Part shown: in pieces, positions 23,240 to 35,421 of the stretch
Layout: every line of letters begins with the position of its first letter
Position numbering within the stretch: the first letter of the stretch is position 1
Source: Actinopolymorpha cephalotaxi
GTDB lineage: Bacteria; Actinomycetota; Actinomycetes; Propionibacteriales; Actinopolymorphaceae
Reading direction: 5' to 3'
DNA: 64,000 bases
Assembly (NCBI RefSeq): GCF_013408535.1
Contig: NZ_JACBZA010000001.1
Coordinates: 6,098,850-6,162,849, forward strand
Notes under the pieces: model-generated
What the model was told of the DNA's origin: nothing
Databases searched by the model: none
The model's input: the letters and a program-made list of their open reading frames with translations, nothing else
Position numbers and translations under genes: made by a program

Positions 23240-24226
23240 ATGCGAACGACGACGCTCGGTGCCGGAGGTCCGCAGGTCGGCCGGATCGGCCTGGGTTGCA
23301 TGGGGATGTCCTGGGCGTACGGCGAGGGTGAACGCGACGACGCCACCTCGATCAAGGTGATCCACCGCGCCCTCGACCTCGGCGTCACGCTGATCGACAC
23401 CGCCGACGCGTACGGCCCGTACTCCAACGAGCAGCTCGTCGGCCGGGCCCTGCGCGGCCGGCGCGACCAGGCGGTCCTCGCCACGAAGGTCGGGCTGATC
23501 CCGGACGGCACCCGTCAGCTGCACCGCAACGCGCGGCCGGAGTACATCCGCGGCGCGATCGAGGGCAGCCTCGCCCGGCTGGGCGTGGACCACGTCGACC
23601 TCTACCAGCTGCACCGCGTCGACCCGGCCGTCCCGCTGGCGGAGAGCTGGGGTGCGCTGGCCGAGCTCGTCGCGCAGGGCAAGGTCCGGGCGATCGGCCT
23701 GTCCGAGGCGACGCTGGCGGAGATCAGGGAGGCGCAGGCGATCCACCCGGTGGCCAGTGTCCAGTCCGAGCTGTCGCTGTGGACCCGCGGCCAGCTCGAC
23801 GAGATCGTCCCCTACACCGAGGAGCAGGGGATCGCGTTCCTGCCGTTCTCTCCGCTCGGGCGCGGGTTCCTCACCGGCGCCATCACCTCCGCGGCCGACC
23901 TGCCCGAGGGCGACATGCGCAAGCAACTGCCGCGCTTCCAGGGCGAGGCGTTCGACGCCAACCAGGCGCTGGTGGCGAAGGTGCGCGCGGTGGCCGAGCG
24001 CGTCGGCGCCACGCCTGGCCAGGTCGCGCTGGCCTGGGTGGTCGCGCGGGGGCAGTACGTCGTGCCGATCCCCGGCACGAAGCGGCTGCGCTACCTCGAG
24101 GAGAACGCCGCCGCGGGCGACCTGGAGCTGCCGGCCGACGCGCTGGCCGAGCTGGACGCGCTGCCGCCCGCGGTCGGCGACCGGTACGGCTCGGCGTTCG
24201 CCGGCGCCTCGACCGGCGCCAAGTAG
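23240..24226 (+). CDS. Aldo/keto reductase
   Basis: The 328-residue enzyme has the AKR TIM-barrel pattern: RIGLGCMGMSWAYGEG, GVTLIDTADAYGPYSNEQLVG (Asp and Tyr of the tetrad), VLATKVGLIP (Lys), VDLYQLHRVDP (His), and a C-terminal NADPH site VVPIPGTKRLRYLEENAAA. It reduces aldehydes or ketones with NADPH in the cytosol; the substrate is not predictable. Its start is 112 bp from the triple operator shared with the divergent HTH gene, so it is a candidate target of that regulator. Confidence 0.92.
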   Translation: MRTTTLGAGGPQVGRIGLGCMGMSWAYGEGERDDATSIKVIHRALDLGVTLIDTADAYGPYSNEQLVGRALRGRRDQAVLATKVGLIPDGTRQLHRNARPEYIRGAIEGSLARLGVDHVDLYQLHRVDPAVPLAESWGALAELVAQGKVRAIGLSEATLAEIREAQAIHPVASVQSELSLWTRGQLDEIVPYTEEQGIAFLPFSPLGRGFLTGAITSAADLPEGDMRKQLPRFQGEAFDANQALVAKVRAVAERVGATPGQVALAWVVARGQYVVPIPGTKRLRYLEENAAAGDLELPADALAELDALPPAVGDRYGSAFAGASTGAK

Positions 24227-24260
24227 GCCACCTCCGCCGGGACGCGAGCCCAGCCGCCCG

Positions 24261-24310
24261 TCGCCTGGTCGTTCACCCGCCGCTCGGTCGCCCTGTCGCC
24301 TGGTCGTTCA
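24261..24310. repeat. Direct repeat of a hydrolase stop-codon segment
   Basis: TCGCCTGGTCGTTCA occurs at 24261-24275 and 24296-24310. On the minus strand both read TGAACGACCAGGCGA; the right copy contains the real TGA stop of the hydrolase gene at 24308-24310. Confidence 0.8.
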
Positions 24311-25057
24311 GCCGAGGTCGGCGAGCGCCCGCGCCAGCCGCTCGGGCTCGGACAGCATCGGCCAGTGCCCGGTCGGCACCTCGGCGTAGGTCCACTCCTT
24401 GCCGCCGAACCCGGCGAAGTACGGATGACCCTCGGCGATCATCGCCCGCACCTGCTCCAGCGGGAACATGCAGGTGACCAGGGTGTGCGGCAGGCCGTCG
24501 CGGCGGCCGTCGCCGGCGAGGTGGAGCGGCTGGGCGTTGGCGTTCAGCGGCTGCGGGACCGCCCGGGCGGTGAACACCGCCCTGGCCGCCTCGTCGAGTC
24601 CGGCGTACACCGGTGCGCCGGAGGCGAGCTCGGCCGGTGACGGCGGCGGAAGGAGCCAGCCGTCCTCGCGTTCCTTCATCCGCCGCAGCGTCGCCTCGCG
24701 CTCCTCCGGCCCGGCCATGTCCAGCTGCGACGTCCCGCTCGGCAGCGGCCCGCTCTCGACGTAGACCAGGCGCGCGATCCGGTCCGGCACCCGCTCGGCC
24801 GCGCCCGTCACCGGGAAGCCGCCGTAGCTGTGGCCGACCAGGATCACCTCGTGCAGGTCGGCGTACTCGATGGTGTGCACGACGTCGGCGACGTGGGTGT
24901 CCAGGTCGACCTCCCGGGACGCGAGGTGCACCCGGTCGCCGACACCGGTGAGCGTGACGGGGTGGACGTCGTGGCCGGCCGCGCGCAGGCGGGCGGTGAC
25001 GTCGGTCCATGCCCAGGCGCCGAGCCAGTTGCCGGCGACGAGTACGTATGTGGCCAT
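24308..25057 (-). CDS. Alpha/beta hydrolase (EstC/salicylate-esterase-like)
   Basis: The 249-residue protein opens with YVLVAGNWLGAWAWTDVTAR, a pattern typical of the AB_hydrolase_6 group of small esterases. The nucleophile elbow is GHSYGGFPVTG (Ser), the acid is probably in the strand before FAGFGGKEWTY, and the His is in VPTGHWPMLSEPERLA. There is no signal peptide. It is divergent from the WYL-type regulator fragment, suggesting that the intact regulator once controlled it. The 15-bp segment containing its stop codon is repeated just downstream. Confidence 0.9.
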   Translation of the reverse strand: MATYVLVAGNWLGAWAWTDVTARLRAAGHDVHPVTLTGVGDRVHLASREVDLDTHVADVVHTIEYADLHEVILVGHSYGGFPVTGAAERVPDRIARLVYVESGPLPSGTSQLDMAGPEEREATLRRMKEREDGWLLPPPSPAELASGAPVYAGLDEAARAVFTARAVPQPLNANAQPLHLAGDGRRDGLPHTLVTCMFPLEQVRAMIAEGHPYFAGFGGKEWTYAEVPTGHWPMLSEPERLARALADLG

Positions 25058-25168
25058 GTGCGGATTCCTTCCGTGAAGGGGTCTGAACGGTCCCTACCTG
25101 ACCCACGTCGGCCACCGTAGAACCGAATCCGGACCGAATCCGCCCGCATTGCGCGGCATGCTGGGAAC

Positions 25169-25396
25169 ATGTCGCCGAACCCGTCACCCGCCGAGCGGCC
25201 GCACCCCACGACCCGGGTGCTCGCGCTGCTCGAGCTCCTGCAGGCCCACCACCGGCTCGGCGGCGCCGAGCTCGCCGACCGGCTGGGCGTCGACCAGCGC
25301 ACCGTCCGCCGGTACGCCACCCGGCTGACCGAGTTCGGCGTACCCGTGGAGGCCGAGCGCGGTCGCTACGGCGGCTACCGCCTGCGCCCCGTATAG
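25169..25396 (+). pseudogene. WYL-type (YafY-like) regulator, N-terminal part, cut by element insertion
   Basis: The reading from ATG 25169 is an HTH_11 domain: TRVLALLELLQAHHRLGGAE, LADRLGVDQRTVRRYATRL, VEAERGRYGGYRLRP. The last two codons (Val, stop) come from element DNA. The expected continuation, starting GYKLPPLMFTDDEA, is found at 34261-35037 in the same orientation, so the gene is split by the 8.9-kb element. A 75-residue HTH-only peptide may still be made and could bind the operator without the sensor part. Confidence 0.9.
25385..25389. other. attL core (left element boundary)
   Basis: CGCCC is shared with 34261-34265. To its left is regulator DNA (Gly-Tyr-Arg-Leu-Arg-Pro codons); to its right element DNA beginning CGTATAGTGCGTCC. 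Rejoining left flank, core and right flank gives codons for YRLRPGYKLPPL, an uninterrupted regulator. Confidence 0.8.
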
Positions 25397-25435
25397 TGCG
25401 TCCTGTACCGCCTTTCACTCCCGAGGGGACGCACC

Positions 25436-25627
25436 ATGAACCAGCTCACCTGGACCCACCACGACGACGGCCGGTGGACCGGCAGCACCACCGACGAGAG
25501 CCTGGTCTGGGTGGTGTACGGCGTCGGCCTGCTGATGCTCGACGGGCAGGTGTTCGGCGACTACGACACCACCCCGCAGGCGCAGCACGCGGCGCAGGTC
25601 TGGACCGAAGCGGCGGCCCGGGCATGA
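25436..25627 (+). CDS. Small protein coupled to the recombinase
   Basis: The 63-residue acidic protein (WTHHDDGRWTGSTTDESLVW, LMLDGQVFGDYDTTPQAQHA) has no recognised family. ATG 25436 follows GAGGGGAC, and its stop overlaps the recombinase start (ATGA), so the two are co-translated. The perfect inverted repeat GTGCGTCC (25396-25403) / GGACGCAC (25427-25434) can fold over its ribosome site. Position next to the integrase makes it a candidate for a recombination-directionality factor, but only by location. Confidence 0.7.
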   Translation: MNQLTWTHHDDGRWTGSTTDESLVWVVYGVGLLMLDGQVFGDYDTTPQAQHAAQVWTEAAARA

Positions 25628-27102
25628 GCGTCGCCACCATCACCCCGCTCGTCCCGGCCACCCTGCGCGCGGCCACCTACCTACGGATCAGCCTCGACGC
25701 CACCGGCGAGGAGCTGGGCGTCGCCCGGCAGCGGCAGGCGCTCTCCGGCATCGCCACCTCGCGCGGCTGGGCTGCCGCCGTGGAGCTGTCCGACAACGAC
25801 CTCAGCGCGGCAGGCAAGATCCGCCGCCCCGGCTTCGAGCGGCTGCTCCGGCTCATGGAGACCGGGCAGGTGGACGTGGTGCTGGCGTACGCCTTCGACC
25901 GCATCGCCCGGAACAGCCGCGACGCGGTTCGGTTCCTGGAGGCGGCGAAGGCGGCGCGGGTGCGCGTCGTCCTGGCGAACGGCGGCGAGCTGGACCTGGA
26001 CAGCCCGATGGGCATGTTCGTGGCGGAGCTGATGGGCAACGTCGCGAAGCTGGAGATCACCACGAAGGGCGCGCGGCAGAAGCTCGCGAACGCCCAGCGC
26101 GCAGAGAGGGGCATCGCACCCGTGACCAAGCGACTGTTCGGCTTCACCCGGGATAAGGCGGCGCACGTGCCCGCCGAGGCCGACGCGGTGCGCGCGGCGT
26201 TCGACCGCGTGCTGGCCGGTGGCAGCGTCCGCGGCATCATCGGCGAGCTGAACGGCGCCGGGCTGTTCACCCCGCTGCCCGACCTGGACGAGAACGGGCT
26301 CGTGAAGGGCACTGGCAAGCCGCCGGAGCGGGGCGGCAAGCCCTGGACGGCGGGCAAGGTGCACGGCCTGCTCCGGAACCCGCAGTACGCCGGTTTCCGG
26401 GTCTACGACGGGCAGGAGCGGCCGGGCACCTGGGAGCCGATCGTGGACCCGGAGAAGTGGCGTGCGGTGCAGCGCATCCTGGACGACCCGGACCGGTTCC
26501 ACGGGAAGCCGCTGGCGCGCCGGTGGGTGGGCGGCGGACTGTACCTGTGCGGCCCGTGCGCGGACGAGGGGATCACGTCGGTGGTGGTGTGCACCAGCCG
26601 CAGCCGTACGGCCGGACCGGTGCGGATCTACAAGTGCACCCGCAAGGCGCACATGAGCTTGAAGGCGGAGCCGGTCGACGCCCTGGTGCGCGCCGTGGTG
26701 TGCAAGCGGCTTCGGGAGCCGGACGCGGCCGACCTGCTGGTGGATGACACCCGCCCGGACACTGCCGCACTGCGTACCGAGGCCGAGTCGCTGCGGGTGC
26801 GCATCCGCGGCCTGGGTGACCTGGTGGAAGACGGCTCGATGAGCCCGGGGGAGTACAAGGAGCGCAAGGCCCGGTTGACGCAGAAGCTCGCCGAGGCGGA
26901 GGCGGGGATGCAGGACTTCGACCGGTCCCCGCTGCTGGCCGGGCTGGTGCACGCCGACGACGTGCACGCCGCGTTCGACGCTCTCGGGCTCGACCAGCAG
27001 CGCGCGGTCATCGACGTTCTGTTCACCGTCACCCTGCGGCCCGCTGGCGGCGGCCGTCGCGCCTTCGACTCGTCCTGGGTGGAGTTCACCCCGAAGGCCT
27101 GA
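25624..27102 (+). CDS. Large serine recombinase (integrase)
   Basis: The 492-residue protein has, in order, a resolvase domain with YLRISLD (catalytic Ser about residue 23), RPGFERLLRLMETGQVDVVL, YAFDRIARN and a long helix (FVAELMGNVAKLEITTKGAR); a recombinase domain (TKRLFGFTRDKAAH, WTAGKVHGLLRNPQYAGFRV); a zinc-ribbon region with CGPC and a later Cys/His pair YKCTRKAH; and a coiled-coil segment (ALRTEAESLRVRIRGL). Such enzymes recombine attP and attB without host factors. Located just inside attL, reading inward, it is the integrase of this element. Confidence 0.95.
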   Translation: MSVATITPLVPATLRAATYLRISLDATGEELGVARQRQALSGIATSRGWAAAVELSDNDLSAAGKIRRPGFERLLRLMETGQVDVVLAYAFDRIARNSRDAVRFLEAAKAARVRVVLANGGELDLDSPMGMFVAELMGNVAKLEITTKGARQKLANAQRAERGIAPVTKRLFGFTRDKAAHVPAEADAVRAAFDRVLAGGSVRGIIGELNGAGLFTPLPDLDENGLVKGTGKPPERGGKPWTAGKVHGLLRNPQYAGFRVYDGQERPGTWEPIVDPEKWRAVQRILDDPDRFHGKPLARRWVGGGLYLCGPCADEGITSVVVCTSRSRTAGPVRIYKCTRKAHMSLKAEPVDALVRAVVCKRLREPDAADLLVDDTRPDTAALRTEAESLRVRIRGLGDLVEDGSMSPGEYKERKARLTQKLAEAEAGMQDFDRSPLLAGLVHADDVHAAFDALGLDQQRAVIDVLFTVTLRPAGGGRRAFDSSWVEFTPKA

Positions 27103-27120
27103 CCAAGCCGTCCAGCCACG

Positions 27121-27147
27121 AAGCCCCCGGCCATGCGCCGGGGGCTT
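27121..27147 (+). terminator. Terminator after the recombinase
   Basis: AAGCCCCCGGC and GCCGGGGGCTT form a perfect 11-bp stem with a five-base loop (27132-27136), 19 bases after the recombinase stop. The T run is weak (TTCTGCTGTCT), as is common in GC-rich bacteria. Confidence 0.8.
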
Positions 27148-27471
27148 CTGCTGTCTCACCATGCGACCGCGGCGGATACAACTTTCAATGACTGCCGCCG
27201 AACCGTCGCCGAACGTGACCGTGCAGCTTTCACGCGGGGGACGGTGGGATTAGGTCCACTCCAGGTCCGGTTTTGTCAGAGAACACCCTTACAGATAAGG
27301 GGATTCGGCGCCGTAGTCGTTCGGTTGGCCCTGCCTTGTGGCGGTAAGGTCGGAGACAGGTAAGCCGGGATCTACCACCGGCCCCCGGCAGCGCGTAGTG
27401 GCGCGCGGGCACCTGCAACACACAGCGGCGATGGGGACGGGTAGCCGCAGCACGGAAGGCGTCCATCGACG
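27148..27471. other. Non-coding leader of the element cargo operon
   Basis: No supported gene lies in these 324 bases. The middle is richer in A/T than the surroundings and holds the inverted repeat CCCTTA-CAGA-TAAGGG (27286-27301) next to TTGTCA (27274-27279), a possible promoter/operator for the rightward cargo genes. Confidence 0.5.
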
Positions 27472-27708
27472 ATGCCCTTGTCACAGAAGGCTCGACAGAA
27501 GCGGTCAGCCATCGGCAACGCCACCCTGACTGGCAACCGCGAAGCAGAACGGATCGCCCGCCAGGAGTACGAGGCGGCGAAGCTCGAAGACGACGCGGCC
27601 CGGATCATCGAGGGCTGGCCGAAGCTCACCGAGGAGCAGCGCGACACCATCCGCCGCATCTTCCGCCCGATCGTGCGGGCAGATGGCGAGCGCAGGGCGG
27701 CCGGGTAA
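27472..27708 (+). CDS. Element protein, 78 aa, helical
   Basis: It opens with MPLSQKARQKRSAIGNATLT, rich in Lys/Arg, followed by an amphipathic helix REAERIARQEYEAAKLEDDA and IEGWPKLTEEQRDTIRRIFR. The family is not recognised by name, though short proteins of this kind (with LTEEQRDTIRRIF) occur repeatedly in actinobacterial integrative elements. It is the first gene of the cargo chain; its stop overlaps the next ATG (TAATG). Confidence 0.75.
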   Translation: MPLSQKARQKRSAIGNATLTGNREAERIARQEYEAAKLEDDAARIIEGWPKLTEEQRDTIRRIFRPIVRADGERRAAG

Positions 27709-27815
27709 TGGGGGCGGCGGACGGGGCGCCGTTCCCCAGAAGAACCGGCGCCCGCCCCACTGCCACCGACACCAGCATGGCACGCCCCACCGACATCGGG
27801 GCGGTGACGCGGTGA
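27708..27815 (+). CDS. Possible 35-aa coupled micro-ORF
   Basis: ATG 27708 shares a base with the preceding stop, and its TGA (27813-27815) overlaps the GTG of the next gene. The peptide (MGAADGAPFPRRTGARPTAT...) has no motif. Coupling at both ends is the only support; it may simply relay ribosomes. Confidence 0.35.
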   Translation: MGAADGAPFPRRTGARPTATDTSMARPTDIGAVTR

Positions 27816-28192
27816 GCGGCGAGTGGGTCAAGTACTCATGCGACCTGGCCTGGGCCATGTCCACGATCGGTTCGGTTGAGCGTCGGCTGATCGACCTGGC
27901 CGTGCTGCGGGTGAACGCGATCGGCCATGCGGAGTTCGGATCTGGTGAGCTTGCGCGCCTGCTGTCCGTCATGGACCCGATCACTGGCGAGGTGGTCCAT
28001 GCGGTGACAGAACGGCACGTGCGCCGAGCCGTCGAAGGGCTGCGCGGGTTGAAGGTCATCGAGCCCGACTCGTCGGTGCTCTGTCTGCACTTCGATGCTG
28101 AGCGGTTGTGCAACGGCACGAGTGGTCACTGGTGTCACCACCACGGCATCGGCAGGGCGCCGAAGCTGGCACGTCAACGGCGCCGCACATGA
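27812..28192 (+). CDS. Winged-helix-like element protein
   Basis: The 126-residue protein starts at GTG 27812. WAMSTIGSVERRLIDLAVLR, then SGELARLLSVMDPITGEV, VTERHVRRAVEGLRGLKVIE and PDSSVLCLHFD give the helix-turn-helix-wing layout of replication-type or phage winged-helix proteins. After it comes GTSGHWCHHHGIGR, an unusual Cys/His stretch. Palindromic GCGGAC...GTCCGC repeats begin 30 bp downstream and could be its binding sites or an origin. The family is not firmly identified. Confidence 0.7.
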   Translation: MSGEWVKYSCDLAWAMSTIGSVERRLIDLAVLRVNAIGHAEFGSGELARLLSVMDPITGEVVHAVTERHVRRAVEGLRGLKVIEPDSSVLCLHFDAERLCNGTSGHWCHHHGIGRAPKLARQRRRT

Positions 28193-28422
28193 CCACGTTT
28201 CCGCAGGTTGGAGCTCCCGAGGCGGACGCTCAGTGTCCGCCTACGGGGGGAAAAGCGGACGCTCAGTGTCCGCCTGCCGGACCTTCAGTGTCCGCGGCCA
28301 ACGCGCTGACCTGCGGGTTTGTGCGCGCCTCTCTTGAGTCTTCTGTACCCCGTTCTGCCTCTGTGGTTGAAGGTCACTTCATTCATGGAGGCCCAGCCCG
28401 GAAGCGGCGCATGAATGAATGA
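28189..28422 (+). CDS. Possible 77-aa ORF spanning palindromic repeats
   Basis: An ATG overlapping the previous stop opens a frame that translates the repeats as ADAQCPPTGGKADAQCPPAG. Third-position G/C bias is weak after about 28310, and the frame ends inside the next gene start. The stretch is more probably regulatory DNA that happens to be open. Confidence 0.25.
   Translation: MTTFPQVGAPEADAQCPPTGGKADAQCPPAGPSVSAANALTCGFVRASLESSVPRSASVVEGHFIHGGPARKRRMNE
28222..28297. repeat. GCGGACGCTCAGTGTCCGCC palindromic repeats
   Basis: Two identical 20-bp copies (28222-28241 and 28255-28274, 33 bp apart) each form GCGGAC-N7-GTCCGC, and a third partial copy (CTTCAGTGTCCGCGG) follows at 28283-28297. 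The spacing is about three DNA turns. They lie directly behind the winged-helix gene, as iterons or operators do in small actinobacterial elements. Confidence 0.75.
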
Positions 28423-28819
28423 CAACCAGAGCCACGAGACAACCCGCGAACAGGCTGCGCTGATCGCTGCGCTCGTGTGCGCCGAACGACCCGAGTGGGA
28501 TGAGCCAGGTGTGATGGCAGCACTCGGCGCGCGCCGGTCGGCCAGGCCCGCGCTCCTGGGCGTCGCTGCCCTGCGCTGGGCGATGAACCCCGCCGCCAGA
28601 ACACCGGCAGGCATCGCACTCGACGGCCCACACTGGCGCATCACCACCGCCGAGCCCGGCGACATGGAGCGGGCTACGTCCACAGTGCCGGTCGGCGTGC
28701 TGTGCGACTACTGCGGACGCAGCGAGGAGCACTGCCGGAGAGCACCGCGCATCGACGACAACCACACCTTCACCCCGCCGGGCAGCGTGCGGCGACACAT
28801 GCGCGGTGCTCTCCGGTGA
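28415..28819 (+). CDS. Element protein of unknown function, 134 aa
   Basis: ATG 28415 starts MNDNQSHETTREQAALIAAL. The first two thirds are helical (PGVMAALGARRSARPALLGV, LRWAMNPAARTP) and the end contains a Cys pair and a distal Cys, VLCDYCGRSEEHC, resembling half a zinc ribbon, then DDNHTFTPPG. No family name can be given. It is coupled to the next gene by GTGA. Confidence 0.7.
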   Translation: MNDNQSHETTREQAALIAALVCAERPEWDEPGVMAALGARRSARPALLGVAALRWAMNPAARTPAGIALDGPHWRITTAEPGDMERATSTVPVGVLCDYCGRSEEHCRRAPRIDDNHTFTPPGSVRRHMRGALR

Positions 28820-29076
28820 GCCACGACGCGCGGTGTGTGGACGGCTGGCTCGGTGAGGACGGCGACGGCCACCCCATCGCCTGCCTGGTCTGCCGCCCAC
28901 ACCTGCGGCCCCGGTCCACGACACCGATCGGCCCGCAGGTACTCACTGGCTTCCCCGAGCCACGCGAACCCGTAGACGACCGGGCCGAACGGAAGCGACG
29001 CCGGACGTACGGGCTGCGCCAGCGACACGCACGCAGACTCCGGATGATTCAACAGAGGAAGGCCACCGAGGAATGA
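28816..29076 (+). CDS. Small Cys-pair element protein, 86 aa
   Basis: GTG 28816 overlaps the previous stop. It contains CVDGW, PIACLVCRPHLRP and a strongly basic C-terminus (ERKRRRTYGLRQRHARRLR), so it may bind zinc and nucleic acid. Unrecognised family. Its stop overlaps the next ATG (ATGA). Confidence 0.65.
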   Translation: MSHDARCVDGWLGEDGDGHPIACLVCRPHLRPRSTTPIGPQVLTGFPEPREPVDDRAERKRRRTYGLRQRHARRLRMIQQRKATEE

Positions 29077-29543
29077 CTGACCTGGATCTCGACGACCCCC
29101 GCACCGTCGCCTACCACGAAGCGGGTCACGCCGTCGCCTACCTTCTGCACCGGCTGCCGTTCCGCTACGTCACGGTGCGGCCCCGCACGGCCGGACTCAC
29201 TGGACACGTAATGATCTGGAGGCCCCGGCGGATGAGTGCGTACACGTACGCATCGGTGGCGGCGGCCGGTCCGGTCGCCGAGGCCCGACACCTTCAGGAA
29301 CTGGGACTCGATGAGGACGAGGTGACGGCACGGATCATCTTCGGCGGGTGTGCCGCGGACTTCGATCAGCAGGACGTTCCCGGCTATCCGGTGGGGTGGT
29401 TCGAGCGCGTCATGACCGACGTACTGACGGAACACTGGCCGGTGGTGGAACGCGTCGCCGAAGCCCTCGCCGAACAGGGAACTCTGTCCGGCCGCCAGGT
29501 CCAACAACTCATGGACCGCGGGCCAGCAGGGGGACACCGATGA
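29073..29543 (+). CDS. HEAGH zinc-peptidase-like protein (FtsH/M41-related)
   Basis: The 156-residue protein carries YHEAGHAVAYLLHR (His15-Glu16-x-x-His19), the zinc-protease motif, followed by YVTVRP and GHVMIWRP, then YASVAAAGPVAEARHL and GGCAADFDQQD, the same order as the M41 peptidase domain of FtsH (HEAGHA, AGRAAEE, GASNDL). There is no AAA domain or membrane anchor. A free M41-like domain in a mobile element is unusual: it could process another element protein or a host factor. It is coupled on both sides by 4-base overlaps. Confidence 0.8.
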   Translation: MTDLDLDDPRTVAYHEAGHAVAYLLHRLPFRYVTVRPRTAGLTGHVMIWRPRRMSAYTYASVAAAGPVAEARHLQELGLDEDEVTARIIFGGCAADFDQQDVPGYPVGWFERVMTDVLTEHWPVVERVAEALAEQGTLSGRQVQQLMDRGPAGGHR

Positions 29544-29782
29544 GTGACTGCTCAACCTGCGGGTCGGCCAGCGACGCGGGCCACACCTACGCCTGCCCAG
29601 ACGCGATCCTCTGCCCGCGCTGCGGCGACCCCACCGTCGTGGTCGACGACGACGGCACCGGCCCCGACACCCGCTGCCAGGACTGCGGAGACGAACACCC
29701 CGCCTGGGCTCACTGCGCGCACTGCGGCACGCAGTACGGCCCACTCGACTTCTGCCCCGGCGGGGAGGACACCGATGGCTGA
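29540..29782 (+). CDS. Zinc-ribbon mini-protein, 80 aa
   Basis: Eleven Cys residues, most in pairs: CSTCGS, CPDAILCPRCGD, CQDCGD, CAHCGT and a last Cys near the end, an arrangement of two tandem zinc ribbons. It is very acidic between ribbons (VVVDDDGTGPD). Probably a scaffold or nucleic-acid/protein adaptor. Coupled to the HEAGH gene by ATGA; overlaps the next gene by 8 bases. Confidence 0.7.
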   Translation: MSDCSTCGSASDAGHTYACPDAILCPRCGDPTVVVDDDGTGPDTRCQDCGDEHPAWAHCAHCGTQYGPLDFCPGGEDTDG

Positions 29783-30059
29783 CCGCGCAACCGAGGCCCT
29801 GCCCGGTAGCTGGCGAGACGTACCGGCACCCCGCCGCAAGCAACCACCACCCAGCCGCCGATGCCGCCTGAAGGGCTGCATCTTCCCGGCCCGGCCCGAC
29901 GCCGACACCTGCGTCGGCCACCAGGACGACGACTACATCGCCCGCCCGGCGGACGCCGACCCGGCCGCCATCCCCGACGTGTGGGGCGGCAGCGGCAGCA
30001 GTGCCCCGTCCCAGCCGCAGACGCCCACCTCCCAGCCCAGCACCGACCGGAAGGGGTAA
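29775..30059 (+). CDS. Small Cys-containing element protein, 94 aa
   Basis: From ATG 29775 the protein reads a basic segment PRRKQPPPSRRCRLKGCIFP, then DADTCVGHQDDDY: Cys-x4-Cys...Cys-x2-His, a plausible small zinc site. The tail is Ser/Thr/Pro-rich and ends TSQPSTDRKG. The same tail DNA (23 bp) recurs at the end of the next gene, showing duplication. Family unknown. Confidence 0.6.
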   Translation: MADRATEALPGSWRDVPAPRRKQPPPSRRCRLKGCIFPARPDADTCVGHQDDDYIARPADADPAAIPDVWGGSGSSAPSQPQTPTSQPSTDRKG

Positions 30060-30065
30060 CCCGCC

Positions 30066-30296
30066 ATGCCCAGCAACACGACACCGCAGACGCCCGCCTA
30101 CGGCGACGAAGGCACCTGGCCCTACTACGCCGCCCAGCCGCCGCCCCACTGCCCCGGCTGCACCGCCCCACTCGGCCAGCGGCACCACCCCCGATGCAGC
30201 GTCCAGCAGTGCGCCGAGTGCTTCGGGCAACGCCACACCACCTGCGACTGCGACACGGCGCCCACCTCCCAGCCCAGCACCACCCGCCCGGGGTAA
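30066..30296 (+). CDS. Cys-rich element protein, 76 aa
   Basis: Three Cys pairs or clusters: HCPGCTAPLG, RCSVQQCAECFG and TTCDCDT, suggesting zinc binding. The C-terminal TSQPSTTRPG is encoded by the 23-bp repeat (30259-30281) also found at 30022-30044 in the preceding gene. Family unknown. Confidence 0.6.
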   Translation: MPSNTTPQTPAYGDEGTWPYYAAQPPPHCPGCTAPLGQRHHPRCSVQQCAECFGQRHTTCDCDTAPTSQPSTTRPG

Positions 30297-30354
30297 CCGG
30301 CCACCACCACCGACACGACACGACAGACGGGCACACAGCAGACAGGAGACAGCC

Positions 30355-30564
30355 ATGCCACCACGCGCAGCCCGACCACGACGACGGACACACCTGCACT
30401 GGACCGACCAGCTCCGCCTCGACCTACTGACCGAAGCCCTACGCAAGAGCGGCCCACAACCATGTGCACGGTGCGGCCGACCACTGCGGGCCGAGGACCG
30501 GCCCGCCCTCGACGGCGACGGGCTCACACACCACGGATGCGCACAACGCGCGACACAGCCGTGA
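30355..30564 (+). CDS. Small zinc-ribbon-like basic protein, 69 aa
   Basis: ATG 30355 follows AGGAG. A basic N-terminus (PPRAARPRRRTHLHW) is followed by DLLTEALRKSGPQPCARCGR and HHGCAQR, i.e. Cys-x2-Cys plus a His-x-x-Cys, a plausible zinc knuckle. Unrecognised. Confidence 0.6.
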   Translation: MPPRAARPRRRTHLHWTDQLRLDLLTEALRKSGPQPCARCGRPLRAEDRPALDGDGLTHHGCAQRATQP

Positions 30565-30697
30565 CACGGGCAGGGGCGGGTCAAAACTTGACGGGCCGCT
30601 CACAGCCCTTGACCCCCCATAGGGCAAGTTTCCCGCTGCCAAGTCTCCAGAACGCCTTCTGAGGCGGTTATTCCCAGCGAAGGGGTGAGAGCAGGCC

Positions 30698-31042
30698 ATG
30701 AACCAACGAGAACGCTCGTGCAGGCGTCAGGGCTGCACGAGGGCCGTTCCAGCGCCGACCGGCCGCGGTCGGCCCCCGTTGTACTGCTCGGAGGGATGTC
30801 GGCGGGCGGTGAAGCTGGAGATCCAGCGACTCAACCGGCAGGTGGACGACGCGGAGCGGCAGGTGACCGCGTGGGGCCGGATGCTCGTGTCCGTGCGTGC
30901 GGCCGAGCAGGGCAAGGGGATGCCGACGCAGGTCGGCTACCTGGGCGACCCGCCTGACCTGATGGTCGCCTTCTGGGAGCGTGAGCGGGTGCGGCTGGGC
31001 GACCGGCTGCGTGACCTCCTGGACGATGGGAGCAACACGTGA
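30698..31042 (+). CDS. Element protein with N-terminal Cys finger and coiled coil, 114 aa
   Basis: The N-terminal CRRQGCTRAVPAPTGRGRPP followed by YCSEGCRRAVK forms a four-Cys finger, as in many actinobacterial mobile-element proteins. A long helix follows (KLEIQRLNRQVDDAERQVTA) and later WERERVRLGDRLRDLL. Probably DNA-binding and dimeric. Coupled to the next gene by GTGA. Confidence 0.7.
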   Translation: MNQRERSCRRQGCTRAVPAPTGRGRPPLYCSEGCRRAVKLEIQRLNRQVDDAERQVTAWGRMLVSVRAAEQGKGMPTQVGYLGDPPDLMVAFWERERVRLGDRLRDLLDDGSNT

Positions 31043-31203
31043 CGGGCACCTGGGCGATCGTCCCGGGGGACGGCGATCCCTCTTCGGAGCATGAGGAGCC
31101 GGACCGGGCGCCGTGCTGGACCTGCGGCGGCGAGCGATGGCTGCTGACGAACCCCGCCAACGAGGACAAGCCGAAGCGGTGCCCGTGGTGCGGCGCGGTG
31201 TAG
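31039..31203 (+). CDS. Zinc-ribbon mini-protein, 54 aa
   Basis: GTG 31039 overlaps the preceding stop. The peptide ends APCWTCGGERWLLT...KRCPWCGAV, two Cys-x2-Cys knuckles spaced for one zinc ribbon. Short, but the motif, coupling and codon bias support it. Confidence 0.7.
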   Translation: MTGTWAIVPGDGDPSSEHEEPDRAPCWTCGGERWLLTNPANEDKPKRCPWCGAV

Positions 31204-31356
31204 CAGCGGTTGTCGGTGGCCGGTGGGAGGATGGGCGGTAAGGCGCGGACCTGGCACTGGTCGGAGCCCTCACGCGGCGTGGCACTCGCCGTCCACTGGA
31301 ACATCCATCACCGCTGGGCCGAGAGGTCCAGCGAGCAGCGCGTGAGGAGTAAAACC

Positions 31357-31602
31357 GTGCTGATGTTGAAAGACATCGAGGCTGCGGAACGGCGTTTCAA
31401 CGAGGCCGCCGCAGAGCTTCGCAAGTACGAGTCCGACCCCGAAGAGTGGCGCGGCGCCATCGAGACGATGCCTCAGGTGGGCAAGCGGGTGCTCAACCTG
31501 GCCGATGCGCACTTCGACCGGCTGGAACAGCTTCGGCGGAACATGAACCAGGCCCGAGCCAGCATGGTCGCCGCCCGGCAGGCTTGGTCCGAGGGTCGGT
31601 GA
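31357..31602 (+). CDS. Coiled-coil element protein, 81 aa
   Basis: GTG 31357 (AGGAG 10 bases upstream) is preferred to longer upstream starts. The protein is almost all helix: IEAAERRFNEAAAELRKYES, ADAHFDRLEQLRRNMNQARA, SMVAARQAW. No family recognised; it probably oligomerises. Confidence 0.6.
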   Translation: MLMLKDIEAAERRFNEAAAELRKYESDPEEWRGAIETMPQVGKRVLNLADAHFDRLEQLRRNMNQARASMVAARQAWSEGR

Positions 31603-31603
31603 C

Positions 31604-31906
31604 GTGATGCAGCGCATCGAGTCGTACGGGCTCCGCGGCGTCGCTCGCCCAGAGCCCGCACCTGCACCGTCACGTACGCGGTCCGTGCCGAAGTCCAAGC
31701 CCGTCACCGATCCGGAGCCCCGCACCGCGGTGTCCCGCACCGATCCGGTGTCCGGCGCCCGGCAGAACCTCCTGGACGGCTACGTGGAGCGCACTACGCG
31801 CGGCGTGACCGTGGTGGGTGAGGCGGCAGGCCTGGCCGTGATCGCGAAGCTGAAGCTCCGCCGCGCAGACCGCCGCGCCGAAGCGACCGTGGTGGTGCTC
31901 CCGTGA
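31604..31906 (+). CDS. Element protein, 100 aa, unknown
   Basis: Start GTG 31604 or ATG 31607. The first half is Pro/Arg-rich and disordered (ARPEPAPAPSRTRSVPKSKP). The second half, DGYVERTTRGVTVVGEAAGL, AVIAKLKLRRADRRAEATVV, has strand-helix character. Coupled to the next gene by GTGA. No family recognised. Confidence 0.55.
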   Translation: MMQRIESYGLRGVARPEPAPAPSRTRSVPKSKPVTDPEPRTAVSRTDPVSGARQNLLDGYVERTTRGVTVVGEAAGLAVIAKLKLRRADRRAEATVVVLP

Positions 31907-32226
31907 GTCCGGCCGCCCCGTTCACCGAACGGCAGCAGGCGCAGCTCCAGTACCGGCACGCCCTCAACGCCCGGACGGTGCCCGCACTCGGGTCCCGGGA
32001 CGAGACGGTCGAGTCGCTACGCGAGGCCCGCCGCCAGACCCTCCGGGCCGCACTCCTGTGCATCCGGCTGGCACTGGAAGGCCCCGACCAGATCCTCTTC
32101 TCCGAGCCGAGCAACGACGACTTGCACGTCATGCTGGGCACGCTGGAGGAAGCCCTCGAAGGGATGCCGGCTCCTGCCCCTCCGGCGGCGACGCCGGAGC
32201 AGGCAACGGTCTGGTTCCGCCGCTAA
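31903..32226 (+). CDS. Element protein, 107 aa, unknown
   Basis: GTG 31903 overlaps the preceding stop. Helical throughout (RQQAQLQYRHALNARTVPAL, ESLREARRQTLRAALLCIRL, DLHVMLGTLEEALEGM), ending in a Pro-rich tail. It is the last rightward cargo gene before the convergent terminator. No family recognised. Confidence 0.6.
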   Translation: MSPAAPFTERQQAQLQYRHALNARTVPALGSRDETVESLREARRQTLRAALLCIRLALEGPDQILFSEPSNDDLHVMLGTLEEALEGMPAPAPPAATPEQATVWFRR

Positions 32227-32663
32227 GAACTCCCCTGGGCGCGCGGTGGGTAGGAGGAACCGGTCCGCGCGCCGAGGGGCGGCGTCAACCTCACCCGGGG
32301 CGACTGCTCATGGCGTCACGGGATGGATGGTCGGGCACTTGCGTGCCTTTCAGCTCGGCCAGCGCCATAGAGCCGGGGCGGCGGCGGCACTCGTCTCCGT
32401 CGCCGCCGCCCCCGGCACCACCACAGACTGTCCGCGCGGCTTGGTTCACCGGCGCGGACGGATCGGTGTTGAGCGTGGTTGTGCGCTCCGCCGAAACGGG
32501 AGAGTCGGCCCGCCCCTACCTTCCTTCCGGGGGCGGGCCGACCACCAGTTCGCCGACGCCCGTCTGCCGTGTCCTGCGGGGGCGGCCCAGGCAACCACCC
32601 CGGCACGGTGCTGCCAGGCCGGGAGACGGCCGTCCAGCCCCGGGACGGGGCACAGACAACGAA
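32227..32663. other. Gap without a supported gene
   Basis: Open frames here are rich in Arg/Pro/Gly and change character along their length. No ribosome site or motif supports a gene. The stretch may be the 3' region of the rightward transcript. Confidence 0.5.
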
Positions 32664-32698
32664 GGAGCCCCCCGCACCTGGCTGGTGCGGGGGGCTCC
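32664..32698. terminator. Strong bidirectional terminator between convergent cargo operons
   Basis: GGAGCCCCCCGCACC and GGTGCGGGGGGCTCC form a perfect 15-bp stem with loop TGGCT. It lies 12 bases past the stop of the leftward lipoprotein gene and ends both cargo operons. Confidence 0.92.
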
Positions 32699-32710
32699 CG
32701 GGTGATGGGG

Positions 32711-33049
32711 TTAGTTGCCGTCCCCGACGTGGCAGGCCCGCCCGTACTGGTCGGCCCACGCCAACATCGAGAGCCCTGAGCCGTCGCGCAGGTAGTTGTC
32801 CGTCACGTCAGCAAGGTCGGCGTAGTCGGTGCCGAGCTGGCCGCCGTACTCCTTGGACGCCTTGCGGGCCAGCGCCTCGGCCTTGACGAGCTGGACGGCC
32901 TCGGCCTGCTGGCCGCCGCCGTTCATCAGAGCCTGCTGAGCCGAGTAGTACGCATCGCACATCTGCTCGTAGGTGCTCTGCCCGCCGCACCCGCTGAGGA
33001 GTGCGGCGCCGAACGCCGCGGTGCACGCGACGGCCAGGAACCTACGCAT
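32711..33049 (-). CDS. Element-encoded lipoprotein, 112 aa
   Basis: ATG 33049 begins MRRFLAVACTAAFGAALLSGC, a signal peptide with lipobox LLSGC (lipidated Cys21). The mature part is a small helical domain (CDAYYSAQQALMNGGGQQAE, LVKAEALARKASKEYG) ending YGRACHVGDGN; two further Cys could form a disulfide. It is exported and anchored to the membrane. A surface lipoprotein in a mobile element may serve exclusion or entry blocking, but that is inference. Last gene of the leftward operon. Confidence 0.8.
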   Translation of the reverse strand: MRRFLAVACTAAFGAALLSGCGGQSTYEQMCDAYYSAQQALMNGGGQQAEAVQLVKAEALARKASKEYGGQLGTDYADLADVTDNYLRDGSGLSMLAWADQYGRACHVGDGN

Positions 33050-33263
33050 GGTGCGCCTCGCGACGCGGGTTCGGTACGCCAGGTGTGCGGTCAACGAGAA
33101 CCAGCCAGACGGCACCCTCGCGGTGCTGGAGCTTCACCCCGTACCGCTTGGACAGGTGCAGGCCCCGCAGCCACCCAGCGGCCTGGTGGAGGGCGGCCTC
33201 GGCACGCTGTAGGTCGTCGAACGACGCCAGCACCTCGGCGCGCGGCGCGGCCGTGGCCGTCAT
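33042..33263 (-). CDS. Element protein, 73 aa, unknown
   Basis: ATG 33263 overlaps the stop of the upstream gene (ATGA), and its own 3' end overlaps the lipoprotein start by 8 bases. The protein is a helix followed by strands: EVLASFDDLQRAEAALHQAA, LHLSKRYGVKLQHREGAVWL, VLVDRTPG. No family recognised. Confidence 0.65.
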   Translation of the reverse strand: MTATAAPRAEVLASFDDLQRAEAALHQAAGWLRGLHLSKRYGVKLQHREGAVWLVLVDRTPGVPNPRREAHHA

Positions 33264-33616
33264 CAGGACGCCTTGCGGCTGGAGCGGATGGGCGTGGCCT
33301 TCGACGCCTTGTCGTCGGCAGGTGCCGTGGCGGGCATGTCGTCAACGAGTGCGCGCACCGATCGCATCCGGGCGGCGTGTGCGGCGTCGGCGGCGTCGGC
33401 GAGCTTGACCAGCCCGGCGCGGATCGCGACCAGCTCGGCCGTGGTGCCCTTCCCGTCCTCGCACCGCTTGACGGTCGCCTGGGTGATGTCGGTCCCGCAC
33501 GCAGCGGCGAGGCCCTGCCAGGTGGCGCCCAGCGACTTCCGGGCGGTGTGGATGTCCTCGGCCATCGCGAGTTGTTCGGCGAGGCGTTGGATGCGTGCGC
33601 GGCGTTCTTCGGTCAT
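33263..33616 (-). CDS. Putative HTH (XRE-like) element regulator, 117 aa
   Basis: ATG 33616 follows GAGAGGAC. Residues about 25-60 (IHTARKSLGATWQGLAAACG, TDITQATVKRCEDGKGTTAE) resemble a Cro/CI helix-turn-helix, with TWQGLAAACG and ITQATVKR as the two helices. The C-terminal third is basic and disordered (DDKASKATPIRSSRKAS). It may regulate the leftward operon or the switch between integration and excision. Call is tentative. Confidence 0.6.
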   Translation of the reverse strand: MTEERRARIQRLAEQLAMAEDIHTARKSLGATWQGLAAACGTDITQATVKRCEDGKGTTAELVAIRAGLVKLADAADAAHAARMRSVRALVDDMPATAPADDKASKATPIRSSRKAS

Positions 33617-33630
33617 GGGAGTGTCCTCTC

Positions 33631-33762
33631 TCAGATCAGGGTGAGCAGGTGGTGGATGAGCCGTACGGCCAGCACGGCGAAGGTGATGAGAGCGGCCAGC
33701 AGAACGACCGCCCATGCAGGTGTCGGCAGGTAGTAGTGGCGACGTCGGCGGTGGTGGGTCAC
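33631..33762 (-). CDS. Small membrane protein, 43 aa
   Basis: GTG 33762 overlaps the upstream stop. A basic head (THHRRRRHYY) is followed by one transmembrane helix (AWAVVLLAALITFAVLAVRL) and a short basic tail, so the N-terminus probably stays inside. Single-pass mini-proteins like this often modulate host membranes or act as toxins; no evidence separates these options. Confidence 0.65.
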   Translation of the reverse strand: MTHHRRRRHYYLPTPAWAVVLLAALITFAVLAVRLIHHLLTLI

Positions 33763-34037
33763 GGACGCCGCTCCTCGCGGGCAACGGCGGCGTCCAGACA
33801 GGCGCCGGGCAGTGCACGCCAGTCGGCGGCCTCGACGCCGAACGAGCCGCCGCACAGCCAGCACAGGGCGAGCAGTGCACCGGCACGCATCCGGGCGGTG
33901 CGGCTGGCCGGACGGTCGATGGCTGCGATCGCCGCGTCGGCGGCCTGGTTCACCCGCTCCGCGGCAGCCATCCGTTCGTGGCCAAGGATGGTCTCGAAGT
34001 CGATCGCGTCAGGGTCTTCCGGAACAATGCGGTCCAC
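33759..34037 (-). CDS. Element protein, 92 aa, first leftward cargo gene
   Basis: GTG 34037 (GGAGAGG about 9 bases upstream) starts VDRIVPEDPDAIDFETILGH. A helix AAERVNQAADAAIAAIDRPA follows, then a Cys-containing hydrophobic stretch (GALLALCWLCGGSFGVEA), possibly a membrane-dipping segment. No family recognised. GTGA coupling to the next gene. Confidence 0.6.
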   Translation of the reverse strand: MDRIVPEDPDAIDFETILGHERMAAAERVNQAADAAIAAIDRPASRTARMRAGALLALCWLCGGSFGVEAADWRALPGACLDAAVAREERRP

Positions 34038-34260
34038 GGTTCTGCACCTCTCCCGTAGGTGTGGGCCGAGGGTCCGGGCTGGAGCTGCAACTCCGCTCGG
34101 ACCCGCCCCGGTTGCGCCGGGGCTGGGGCGAAGCATCCCCCCGCGACCTGACCGGTCTGTCCGGTTTTTGCCTCCGGTTTACCCCGAGGTCTGGTTCTGG
34201 CCGATTATGGCCACTTGGTCTGACCGCAGGCGCGGGGAAAGGCGGCACGGACTGCACTAA
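34038..34260. promoter_or_regulatory. Leader and promoter region at the right element end
   Basis: No gene seen. It contains a two-tier hairpin (34071-34103, GGTCCG/CGGACC with inner GGAG/CTCC), a second hairpin CCCCGG-TTGCG-CCGGGG (34106-34122), repeated CCGGTTT motifs near 34160-34180, and the palindrome TGGCC-GATTAT-GGCCA (34198-34213), whose minus strand contains CATAAT, a possible -10 for the leftward operon. The last bases are the right arm of attP. Confidence 0.5.
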
Positions 34261-34265
34261 CGCCC
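34261..34265. other. attR core (right element boundary)
   Basis: CGCCC matches attL. To the left is element DNA GGACTGCACTAA; to the right regulator codons for GYKLPPL. Joining this left arm, the core and the attL right arm gives an attP-like sequence with imperfect dyad arms GGACTGCACTAACG and CGTATAGTGCGTCC. Confidence 0.8.
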
Positions 34266-35037
34266 GGGATACAAGCTGCCGCCGCTGATGTTCACCGACG
34301 ACGAGGCCACCGCCGTCGTGCTCGGACTGGTCGCGGCGCGCGCCGCCGGGCCGGCCACCTCCACGACGGCGACCGCGACCGAGAGCGCGCTGGCCAAGAT
34401 CTCCCGCGTCCTGCCCGCGGCGGTGCGCGACCGGGTGACCGCGGTCCAGGACACCCTCGGCCTGACCCGGCCGACCCGGACCGGCGAGGTACCGCCGACC
34501 GAGGTGGTCCTCACCCTCGCGTCCGCCGCACGGCGCCGGCAGCGGGTGCACCTGACCTACGCCGGTCGCGGCGGCGAGCGGTCCGAGCGCGACCTCGACC
34601 CGTACGGCCTGGTCGTCGACCGGGGCAGGTGGTACGTCACCGGCCACGACCACCGGCGCGACGAGGTGCGCACCTTCCGGGTGGACCGGATCGCCGCGGT
34701 CACCCCGACCGGCGCCGGGTTCGAACCGCCGGCCGACTTCGATCCGGTTGCCCGGGTGAGCGAGTCGCTGGCCCGGGTCCCGTGGGCGCACGAGGTCGAG
34801 GTCGTCCTGGACGCTCCACTGGCAGACGTACGCCGGCGGGTCCCGGCGACGCTGGCCACGCTCGCGGAGGCGGACGGCGGCGTCGTGCTGACCATGCGGG
34901 CCGAGCGCCTCGACGGCGCCGCGCTGATGCTGGCCGGGCTCGGCTGGCCGTTCGAGGTGCGCCGTCCGGCCGAGTTGCGCGCGGAGGTGCGGGCGCTCGG
35001 CGTGGCGCTGCAGTCGTACGCCGGCCGCGGCGCGTGA
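34261..35037 (+). pseudogene. WYL-type regulator, C-terminal part
   Basis: The frame continues the 25169 gene: GYKLPPLMFTDDEATAVVLG, then the WYL domain RRRQRVHLTYAGRGGERSER and DLDPYGLVVDRGRWYVTGHD, FRVDRIAAVTPTG, and the WCX extension to 35037. Joined to the N-terminal part the protein would be about 332 residues, the usual length. A new product from ATG 34288 is possible but lacks DNA binding. The key contact positions (Tyr in LTYAGR; Arg in FRVDRI) are intact, so decay is recent. Confidence 0.9.
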
Positions 35038-35080
35038 GGCTTCCGCCGGACTGCTCGGGTCCAGCTCCTCAGGCGGCTCC

Positions 35081-35410
35081 TCAGCTGTCGGTCCCGCGCC
35101 GGCCGCGGCGGAGCTCGGTCCCGAGCGCGTCCAGCCGCTGCGTCCAGAACCGGCGGTACTGCTCCAGCCACTCGTCCACCTCACGCAGCGGCGCGGTGTC
35201 CACGGCGTACAGCCGGCGGGTGCCCTCGGCCCGGACGTTCGCGAAGCCGTTCTCGCGCAGGACCCGCAGGTGCTGGGACACCGCCGGCTGGCTGATCCCG
35301 AACTCCGCCCGGATCGTCTCCACGATCGCCCCCGCCGACTGCTCGCCGTCGGCGAGGAGTTCGAGGATGCGCCGTCGTACGGGATCGCCGAGTACGTCGA
35401 AGGCGTGCAC
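35081..35410 (-). CDS. ArsR-family repressor (SdpR/Rv-type, without metal site)
   Basis: The 109-residue protein starts at GTG 35410 behind GAAGGATC. Compact winged helix: AFDVLGDPVRRRILELLADG, GAIVETIRAEFGISQPAVSQ, HLRVLRENGFANVRAEGTRR and a C-terminal dimer helix LREVDEWLEQYRRFWTQRLD. ArsR proteins of this type sit beside SRPBCC/AHSA1 genes, here 11 bases upstream on the same strand. A palindromic site before the SRPBCC gene is the likely target. Confidence 0.92.
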   Translation of the reverse strand: MHAFDVLGDPVRRRILELLADGEQSAGAIVETIRAEFGISQPAVSQHLRVLRENGFANVRAEGTRRLYAVDTAPLREVDEWLEQYRRFWTQRLDALGTELRRGRRGTDS

Positions 35411-35421
35411 AGGTCGATCCT

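What the first reader, a model, noticed from the sequence alone, without database searches (positions are those of the whole stretch)
25385..34265. Compact serine-integrase element inserted in a WYL regulator gene
The two regulator halves flank the element in frame and CGCCC is shared at both ends. A recombinase lies at the left end. The element lacks any recognised transfer, capsid or replication gene, making it an unusually small integrative unit (about 8.9 kb). Insertion into a WYL regulator could act as a switch: excision would restore the regulator.
Basis: partly seen in the sequence, partly recalled or inferred. Interest (0 to 1): 0.8.

Follow-up and report, generated by a model that had tools for sequence, protein, structure and literature searches.

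The report
Small mobile element with phased origin module
A small mobile DNA element has cut a bacterial regulator gene in two, and it carries an unrecognised small protein followed by three evenly phased repeats that look like its own replication origin, a layout that recurs in other elements with different repeat sequences.

Summary
An 8.9-kb insertion (25385-34265, core CGCCC) splits an HTH/WYL/WCX regulator. In all 5 other held genomes of the genus the gene is uncut, gap-free across the junction, so this is a precise insertion by the complete serine integrase at its left end; the circle junction is an imperfect palindrome, as expected of attP. The regulatory switch is not supported: the site is empty in all congeners, and no excision factor or controlling signal was found. 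"No replication gene" is probably wrong. Gene 27812-28192, without convincing match in the libraries searched, is followed by three 17-bp dyads spaced 33 and 22 bp, a pattern found nowhere else in the 6.86-Mb genome. Of 15 distinct family hits, 9 have 3-4 repeats beside the stop codon, nearly all spaced in steps of about 10.8 bp, with different sequences, followed by a TCTTCT-like motif and in 7 of 9 a GC dip; 6 have none. I read this as an initiator-plus-iteron origin shared by prophages and capsid-less elements with serine or tyrosine integrases. Most likely the element excises, replicates from this origin and re-inserts; binding, replication and the route between cells are untested.

The parts
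25169..25396 (+). 5' half of the split regulator: HTH_11 DNA-binding domain, running into a stop just inside the element
   Evidence: Pfam HTH_11 1.1e-14; translation
25385..25389 (.). left copy of the CGCCC core (attL)
   Evidence: empty-site alignments
25394..25416 (.). left arm of the attP inverted repeat
   Evidence: I14; symmetry test
25436..25627 (+). 63-aa ORF overlapping the integrase start (ATGA); possible directionality factor or leader gene (guess)
   Evidence: no family; no relative in 20 genome loci or 63 viral loci
25624..27102 (+). large serine integrase, 492 aa; Arg21, Ser23, Arg93 and Arg96 invariant in a 13-sequence alignment
   Evidence: nearest relatives among those sampled 38-41% identical
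27472..27708 (+). 78-aa small protein downstream of the integrase; related ORFs lie downstream of some relatives' integrases
   Evidence: tblastn hits in 4 of 20 relatives' loci and 1 of 63 viral loci
27812..28192 (+). 126-aa protein ('wH', presumed winged helix), candidate replication initiator
   Evidence: no convincing match in Pfam, PHROGs, PADLOC, NCBIfam or PDB sequences; homologues
28223..28295 (.). three 17-bp dyads at 28223, 28256 and 28278 (spacings 33, 22; the third differs at two bases): candidate iterons
28328..28344 (.). motif CCTCTCTTGAGTCTTCT, present in variant form 3' of other arrays; the 100 nt after the array are low in GC
28415..28819 (+). 134-aa ORF, weak similarity to a hypothetical protein of Arthrobacter phage Sonali
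   Evidence: E 5e-3
29073..29543 (+). 156-aa protein with HEAGH motif, partial peptidase M41 domain
   Evidence: Pfam PF01434 31.0 bits, cut-off 29.9; no relative in the 393 other genomes sampled or in phages
29540..31203 (+). run of small ORFs, several with Cys pairs: 29540-29782, 29775-30059, 30066-30296, 30355-30564, 30698-31042, 31039-31203
   Evidence: weak zinc-ribbon matches for the first only; translations
31357..32226 (+). three small ORFs without family (31357-31602, 31604-31906, 31903-32226)
32711..33049 (-). 112-aa protein with a lipobox-like N-terminus (read by eye)
   Evidence: translation; no confident family
33263..33616 (-). 117-aa HTH-like protein, candidate repressor
   Evidence: weak matches only: PHROG regulators (best E 0.005), NCBIfam antitoxin-type HTH (E 0.004)
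33759..34037 (-). 92-aa ORF, no family
34237..34259 (.). right arm of the attP inverted repeat
   Evidence: I14
34261..34265 (.). right copy of the CGCCC core (attR)
34288..35037 (+). 3' half of the split regulator: WYL and WCX domains
   Evidence: Pfam WYL 5.1e-24, WCX 5e-11

Best explanation
It is a compact integrative element. Shown: a complete serine integrase gene and precise insertion at the conserved GGYRLRPGYKLPPL stretch of a WYL regulator, with a 5-bp core. Inferred: the integrase excises the element as an 8876-bp circle, helped by an unidentified directionality factor. The protein of 27812-28192 then binds the three dyads just 3' of its gene, which lie on one face of the helix (33 and 22 bp apart), helps open the adjacent lower-GC stretch and starts replication, as an iteron initiator does. 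Copies re-insert at the same motif. Transfer between cells would need a helper phage or conjugative element, because no transfer or capsid gene was recognised. The split regulator is collateral damage, reversible on excision.
For: Empty sites: 7 of 7 relatives fetched. attP symmetry. Homologues of 27812-28192: Jiangella asiatica, 64% identical (named); G230 and G162; 9 of 235 other genomes sampled, Jiangella among them; G340, G710 and viral contig L158 among loci held. Arrays: of 15 distinct family hits, 9 have one; 7 score 37 or more of 45, against 11 of 1125 control ORF ends, and 6 score 41 or more, against 2 of 1125 (in 400 random windows 5 and 3). Spacing 33/22 is the best of 2025 pairs in 3 of 15 and in 0 of 1125 controls. 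The 19 spacings give a best period of 10.75 bp, vector strength 0.957, 0 of 20000 random sets. That list left out a 14-bp step in G340 and took the weak G230 array as 32/23; in six versions with and without these the strength is 0.745-0.969, the period 10.55-10.85, and 0 of 2000 random sets reach it. Five units chosen by eye are dyads on the same ninth base. Shared 3' motif: 10.8 bits against 8.6 +/- 0.4 in 56 control sets, maximum 9.9. GC after the array in the lowest 17% of its context in 7 of 9.
Against: No library names the gene; one of 10 members has a marginal PHROG replication match (E 0.0096) and one a MarR_2 match (E 0.0086). The fold prediction was poor (mean pLDDT 49), so 'winged helix' is an impression. 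6 of 15 family hits have no array. G230 (33) and G162 (34) are not significant by score: 188 and 70 of 1125 controls reach those values; a unit scan read G230 as 18/37 with an inverted middle copy and found only two G162 copies at its threshold. Units of G162, G230 and G031 are poor dyads. In the motif search the sites picked for G162 and G564 are not the motif seen by eye, and controls had fewer restarts (12 against 25). Two of 9 arrays show no GC dip. Six control ORF ends also had arrays of 37 or more near the stop. Phasing also suits operators or centromeres. No circle, copy-number or binding data exist.
Confidence: 0.6

Rival explanations
1. The array is an operator: the wH protein, or another element regulator, controls the small-gene operon that starts just 3' of it. 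It is not an origin.
For: Small ORFs run on the same strand 3' of the array; dyads suit dimeric repressors; one family member matches MarR_2 weakly.
Against: The array sits at the 3' end of the gene and is followed by a shared motif and in 7 of 9 a GC dip, which operators do not need.
Confidence: 0.22
2. The array is a partition or centromere-like site that keeps the circle in dividing cells.
For: In some mycobacteriophages a parS locus of direct repeats lies immediately downstream of repA (PMC7157519, passages read).
Against: No ParA-like ATPase was matched among the element ORFs scanned.
Confidence: 0.08
3. A regulatory switch: programmed excision restores the WYL regulator under certain conditions.
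For: The joined gene is in frame and complete; the integrase looks complete.
Against: The site is empty in all 5 held congeners; no excision factor was recognised; the cargo looks like that of an ordinary mobile element.
Confidence: 0.06
4. A decayed prophage that lost its virion genes and is now inert.
For: Related modules lie near capsid or terminase genes in G031, G467 and G564; no virion genes are recognised here.
Against: Integrase, both att sites and the array are intact; no phage pseudogene was recognised; other loci with the gene show no obvious virion genes (Jiangella, G586, partly by eye).
Confidence: 0.2

Closest known systems
Phage-inducible chromosomal islands (PICIs, SaPIs)
   Same: Small integrative elements whose replication origin lies immediately 3' of the initiator gene (PMC6092414, passages read).
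   Different: No primase or PICI-type rep and no terS matched; one array of 3-4 sites, not two iteron sets flanking an AT-rich region; the candidate initiator has only 126 aa.
Lambdoid phage O gene and its origin
   Same: Initiator gene tightly linked to a short iteron set next to an AT-rich region (PMC7466680, passages read).
   Different: The array lies at or after the 3' end of the gene, not in its middle; repeat sequence differs between relatives; no library match links the proteins.
Actinomycete integrative and conjugative elements (AICEs)
   Same: Integrative elements of actinobacteria; 19 of 144 in one census used serine recombinases, one group of them in protein-coding genes (PMC3218068, passages read).
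   Different: No FtsK-type transfer gene, RepAM or Prim-Pol matched.
Gene-splitting excisable elements (skin in sigK, phage in comK)
   Same: Insertion in a regulator, in frame on excision.
   Different: No sign of host control or timing. Comparison mostly recalled; for skin I saw only the start of an abstract in a listing (PMC5025042).

Membership tests
Serine-integrase mobile element | Large serine recombinase with Resolvase and Recombinase domains | tested here: met
Serine-integrase mobile element | Precise empty site with short core | tested here: met
Serine-integrase mobile element | Excision with a directionality factor | not testable with these tools
   ORF 25436-25627 is only a guess; no relative found
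AICE | FtsK/SpoIIIE-type transfer protein | tested here: not met
   no match among ORFs scanned with Pfam
AICE | RepSA, RepAM or Prim-Pol initiator | tested here: not met
   no RepAM or Prim-Pol match in Pfam; RepSA was a model of the census paper itself and could not be tested directly
PICI | Initiator gene followed by an iteron origin | tested here: inconclusive
   layout present; function untested
PICI | Primase/Rep or terS genes | tested here: not met
PICI | Phage-dependent induction, packaging and interference | not testable with these tools
   no helper phage known
Prophage | Capsid, portal or terminase genes | tested here: not met
Iteron-type origin | Repeats in helical phase beside the initiator gene | tested here: met
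Iteron-type origin | Initiator binds the repeats and replication depends on them | not testable with these tools
   needs bench work
Iteron-type origin | Adjacent easily melted region | tested here: inconclusive
   GC dip after 7 of 9 arrays

The most novel reading that the evidence does not exclude
The 126-aa protein belongs to an undescribed family of minimal replication initiators whose origins obey a geometric rule (3-4 sites in 2- or 3-turn steps, often dyads on a fixed centre) while the recognised sequence is free to diverge. Elements sharing one architecture could then stay mutually compatible by changing specificity, and the module would be exchanged between prophages and capsid-less elements regardless of integrase type.
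Probability: 0.45. Interest if true: 0.7.

Novelty: new variant of a known kind. Interest (0 to 1): 0.5.

Why it matters
Small integrative elements of actinomycetes without transfer genes are easily taken for remnants. A recognisable origin module would mark them as replicons. The array can be searched for by geometry, not sequence, which could reveal relatives that similarity searches miss, and change of repeat sequence on a fixed scaffold is a testable case of specificity turnover between an initiator and its sites. The integrase adds an attachment site in a conserved motif of a widespread regulator family.

Tried and rejected
Close relatives of the integrase were sought in genome contigs and viral contigs and of the M41-like protein in viral contigs; none was found. 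The wH protein gave none in viral contigs and only Jiangella asiatica in genome contigs; in the Jiangella family 1 of 22 genomes, Jiangella itself. tblastn of five wH proteins, one per call, against isolated phages gave no match; against plasmids, the window's and L172's gave none. The integrase profile found 63 viral loci, none with WYL halves and one with a relative of the 78-aa ORF. No integrase relative in the same kind of site turned up; L091 has WYL matches on the other strand, over 2 kb from its integrase, not flanking it. attP symmetry within 20 bp was at chance; it stood out over 28-30 bp, a width chosen after seeing the sequence. The first three-repeat scan (15 of 17 matches) found only the window and Jiangella arrays at 33/22 in 1.69 Mb of loci; the looser scan came afterwards. 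A strict dyad scan missed the window's own array. L174 and L175 (G030, G101) were dropped as spurious: they were not hit by the four-row profile. The 1125 control ORF ends are ORFs with coding-like base use, not verified genes, and loci L081 and L087, which carry arrays, were not left out. The structure model was too poor to use, so no fold search was made. Rfam: nothing at the gathering score in 24000-36000.

Literature: 'serine integrase' + WYL + attB gave 0 papers. The listings showed me no title or abstract start describing this site or array; only passages of PMC3218068, PMC12924846, PMC7466680, PMC6092414 and PMC7157519 were read. Most subscription papers are not held.
Full report
WHAT IS THERE. 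The window lies in a single-contig 6.86-Mb genome (G000). An insertion bounded by CGCCC at 25385-25389 and 34261-34265 separates an HTH_11 domain (25169-25396) from WYL and WCX domains (34288-35037). Joining the flanks restores one open frame of 330 aa. The corresponding gene is uncut in all 5 other held genomes of the genus (G001-G005), in family member G007 and in G051 of the same order; all 7 align without gaps across the joint. The other held family member, G006, gave only a partial match to the HTH part, not followed. The target is the stretch GGYRLRPGYKLPPL. The element exists once in this genome (four other matches were 35-83 bases).

THE INTEGRASE AND ITS SITES. 25624-27102 has Resolvase and Recombinase domains and fits PHROG 95. 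Residues expected in the active site (named from general knowledge) are invariant among 13 integrases. The nearest relatives among the genomes sampled are 38-41% identical. The inner ends form an imperfect inverted repeat (I14). Centred on core position 4/5, 19 of 30 pairs are symmetric in the reconstructed attP, reached by 39 of 20000 random joins and 30 of 12720 window positions; a narrower 20-bp test was not significant.

CARGO. The other ORFs are small. One passes the Pfam cut-off for peptidase M41 (29073-29543); several have cysteine pairs; one minus-strand protein is weakly HTH-like. No capsid, terminase, relaxase, FtsK or known rep gene was matched among the ORFs scanned; three small ORFs were not scanned. 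The M41-like gene had no relative in the 393 other genomes sampled.

THE REPLICATION MODULE. Gene 27812-28192 has no convincing family. Three repeats lie 3' of the window's gene at 28223, 28256 and 28278; the exact pattern occurs nowhere else in the genome. The Jiangella gene is followed by three repeats of different sequence at the same spacings, 33 and 22. This prompted a wider search: G230 and G162 (two further weak hits there were dropped as spurious), then 10 of 236 genomes including the window's own and Jiangella, plus G340, G710 and a viral contig (L158) among loci already held.

For the 15 distinct family hits, the 300 nt around and after the stop codon were scanned for the best three-repeat set over 2025 spacing pairs (G710 was cut there and rechecked). 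Nine have an array, starting 40 nt before to 41 nt after the stop: window 33/22 (41 of 45), Jiangella 33/22 (43), G162 33/22 (34), G230 32/23 (33), G586 32/22 (43), G340 33/32 (37; a unit scan adds a copy 14 bp upstream), G031 33/33 (41), G467 43/22, resolved as 21/22/22 (41), G564 54/21 (43). Six have none: G710, G465, G478, G557, G537 and L158. Among 1125 control ORF ends, 11 scored 37 or more, 2 scored 41 or more, and none had 33/22 as its best pair; among 400 random windows the counts were 5 and 3. G162 and G230 are not significant by score alone, and a unit scan read G230 as 18/37.

The 19 spacings give a best period of 10.75 bp with vector strength 0.957; none of 20000 random sets equalled it. 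Adding the 14-bp step and reading G230 as 18/37 lowers this to 0.745 at 10.85 bp; using only the arrays scoring 37 or more gives 0.966 at 10.85 bp; none of 2000 random sets reached the value in any of six versions. The arrays are homologous in position, so the spacings are not independent events.

The repeat sequences differ from element to element. Five units, chosen by eye, are 17-mers with dyad symmetry about the same ninth base; G340 is a fair dyad and G162, G230 and G031 are poor ones. A motif ending mostly in TCTTCT follows the array (Gibbs search, 10.8 bits against a control maximum of 9.9 in 56 sets; in two of nine the site picked differs from the one seen by eye, and controls had fewer restarts). 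Of the nine, 8 have an 18-mer with at least 14 pyrimidines and 7 T within 110 nt, against 4.8% of 5000 controls. The following 100 nt are low in GC for their context in 7 of 9.

WHERE THE MODULE LIVES. Near serine integrases: window, G340, G031 (with a Phage_capsid gene), G564 (with a terminase), and G710 without array. Near tyrosine integrases: Jiangella, G230, G162, G586, G467 (with a terminase). That each pair belongs to one element is inferred from proximity; ends were not mapped except in the window. No isolated phage matched any of five family members by tblastn and no plasmid matched the two tested.

HOW IT LIKELY WORKS. Shown: insertion site, complete integrase gene, paired att arms, gene-plus-array layout conserved in geometry. 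Inferred: excision, binding of the 126-aa protein to the array, local melting, replication of the circle, re-insertion. Unknown: the excision factor and the route between cells. The layout resembles PICIs, whose origin lies immediately 3' of the initiator gene (PMC6092414), and the lambdoid O gene and origin (PMC7466680), but tested features of PICIs, AICEs and prophages were not met. Operator or centromere functions remain possible.

THE SWITCH IDEA. Excision would restore the regulator, as for any precise insertion in frame. The site is empty in all 5 held congeners, and the element looks like an ordinary mobile unit. A divergent gene next door (24308-25057; hydrolase-like by eye) is a plausible target of the regulator, so the insertion may deregulate it; this is inference.

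Noticed in passing
window 28735-28816: A perfect 18-bp inverted repeat (46 nt between the arms) at the 3' end of ORF 28415-28819; RNA folding z-score -4.7. Unexplained.
   Followed up: partly
L097:70-240: About six GGAACGATCGTTCC-like palindromes in roughly 22-bp steps (counted by eye) beside an apparent HTH gene in G626: possibly the same kind of array with another protein.
   Followed up: no
L083:8818-9795 and L087:10538-11401: Two related integrases lie next to apparently cut CpaF-type ATPase genes (named by eye), suggesting another coding-gene attachment site.
   Followed up: no
L089 and L090: Strong three-repeat sets near the stop of control ORFs (score 45 at 19/19, score 39 at 39/45), in loci that carry integrases.
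   Followed up: no
window 30022-30329: A 71-nt direct repeat (82% identical, copies 237 bp apart) across small ORFs of the element.
   Followed up: no
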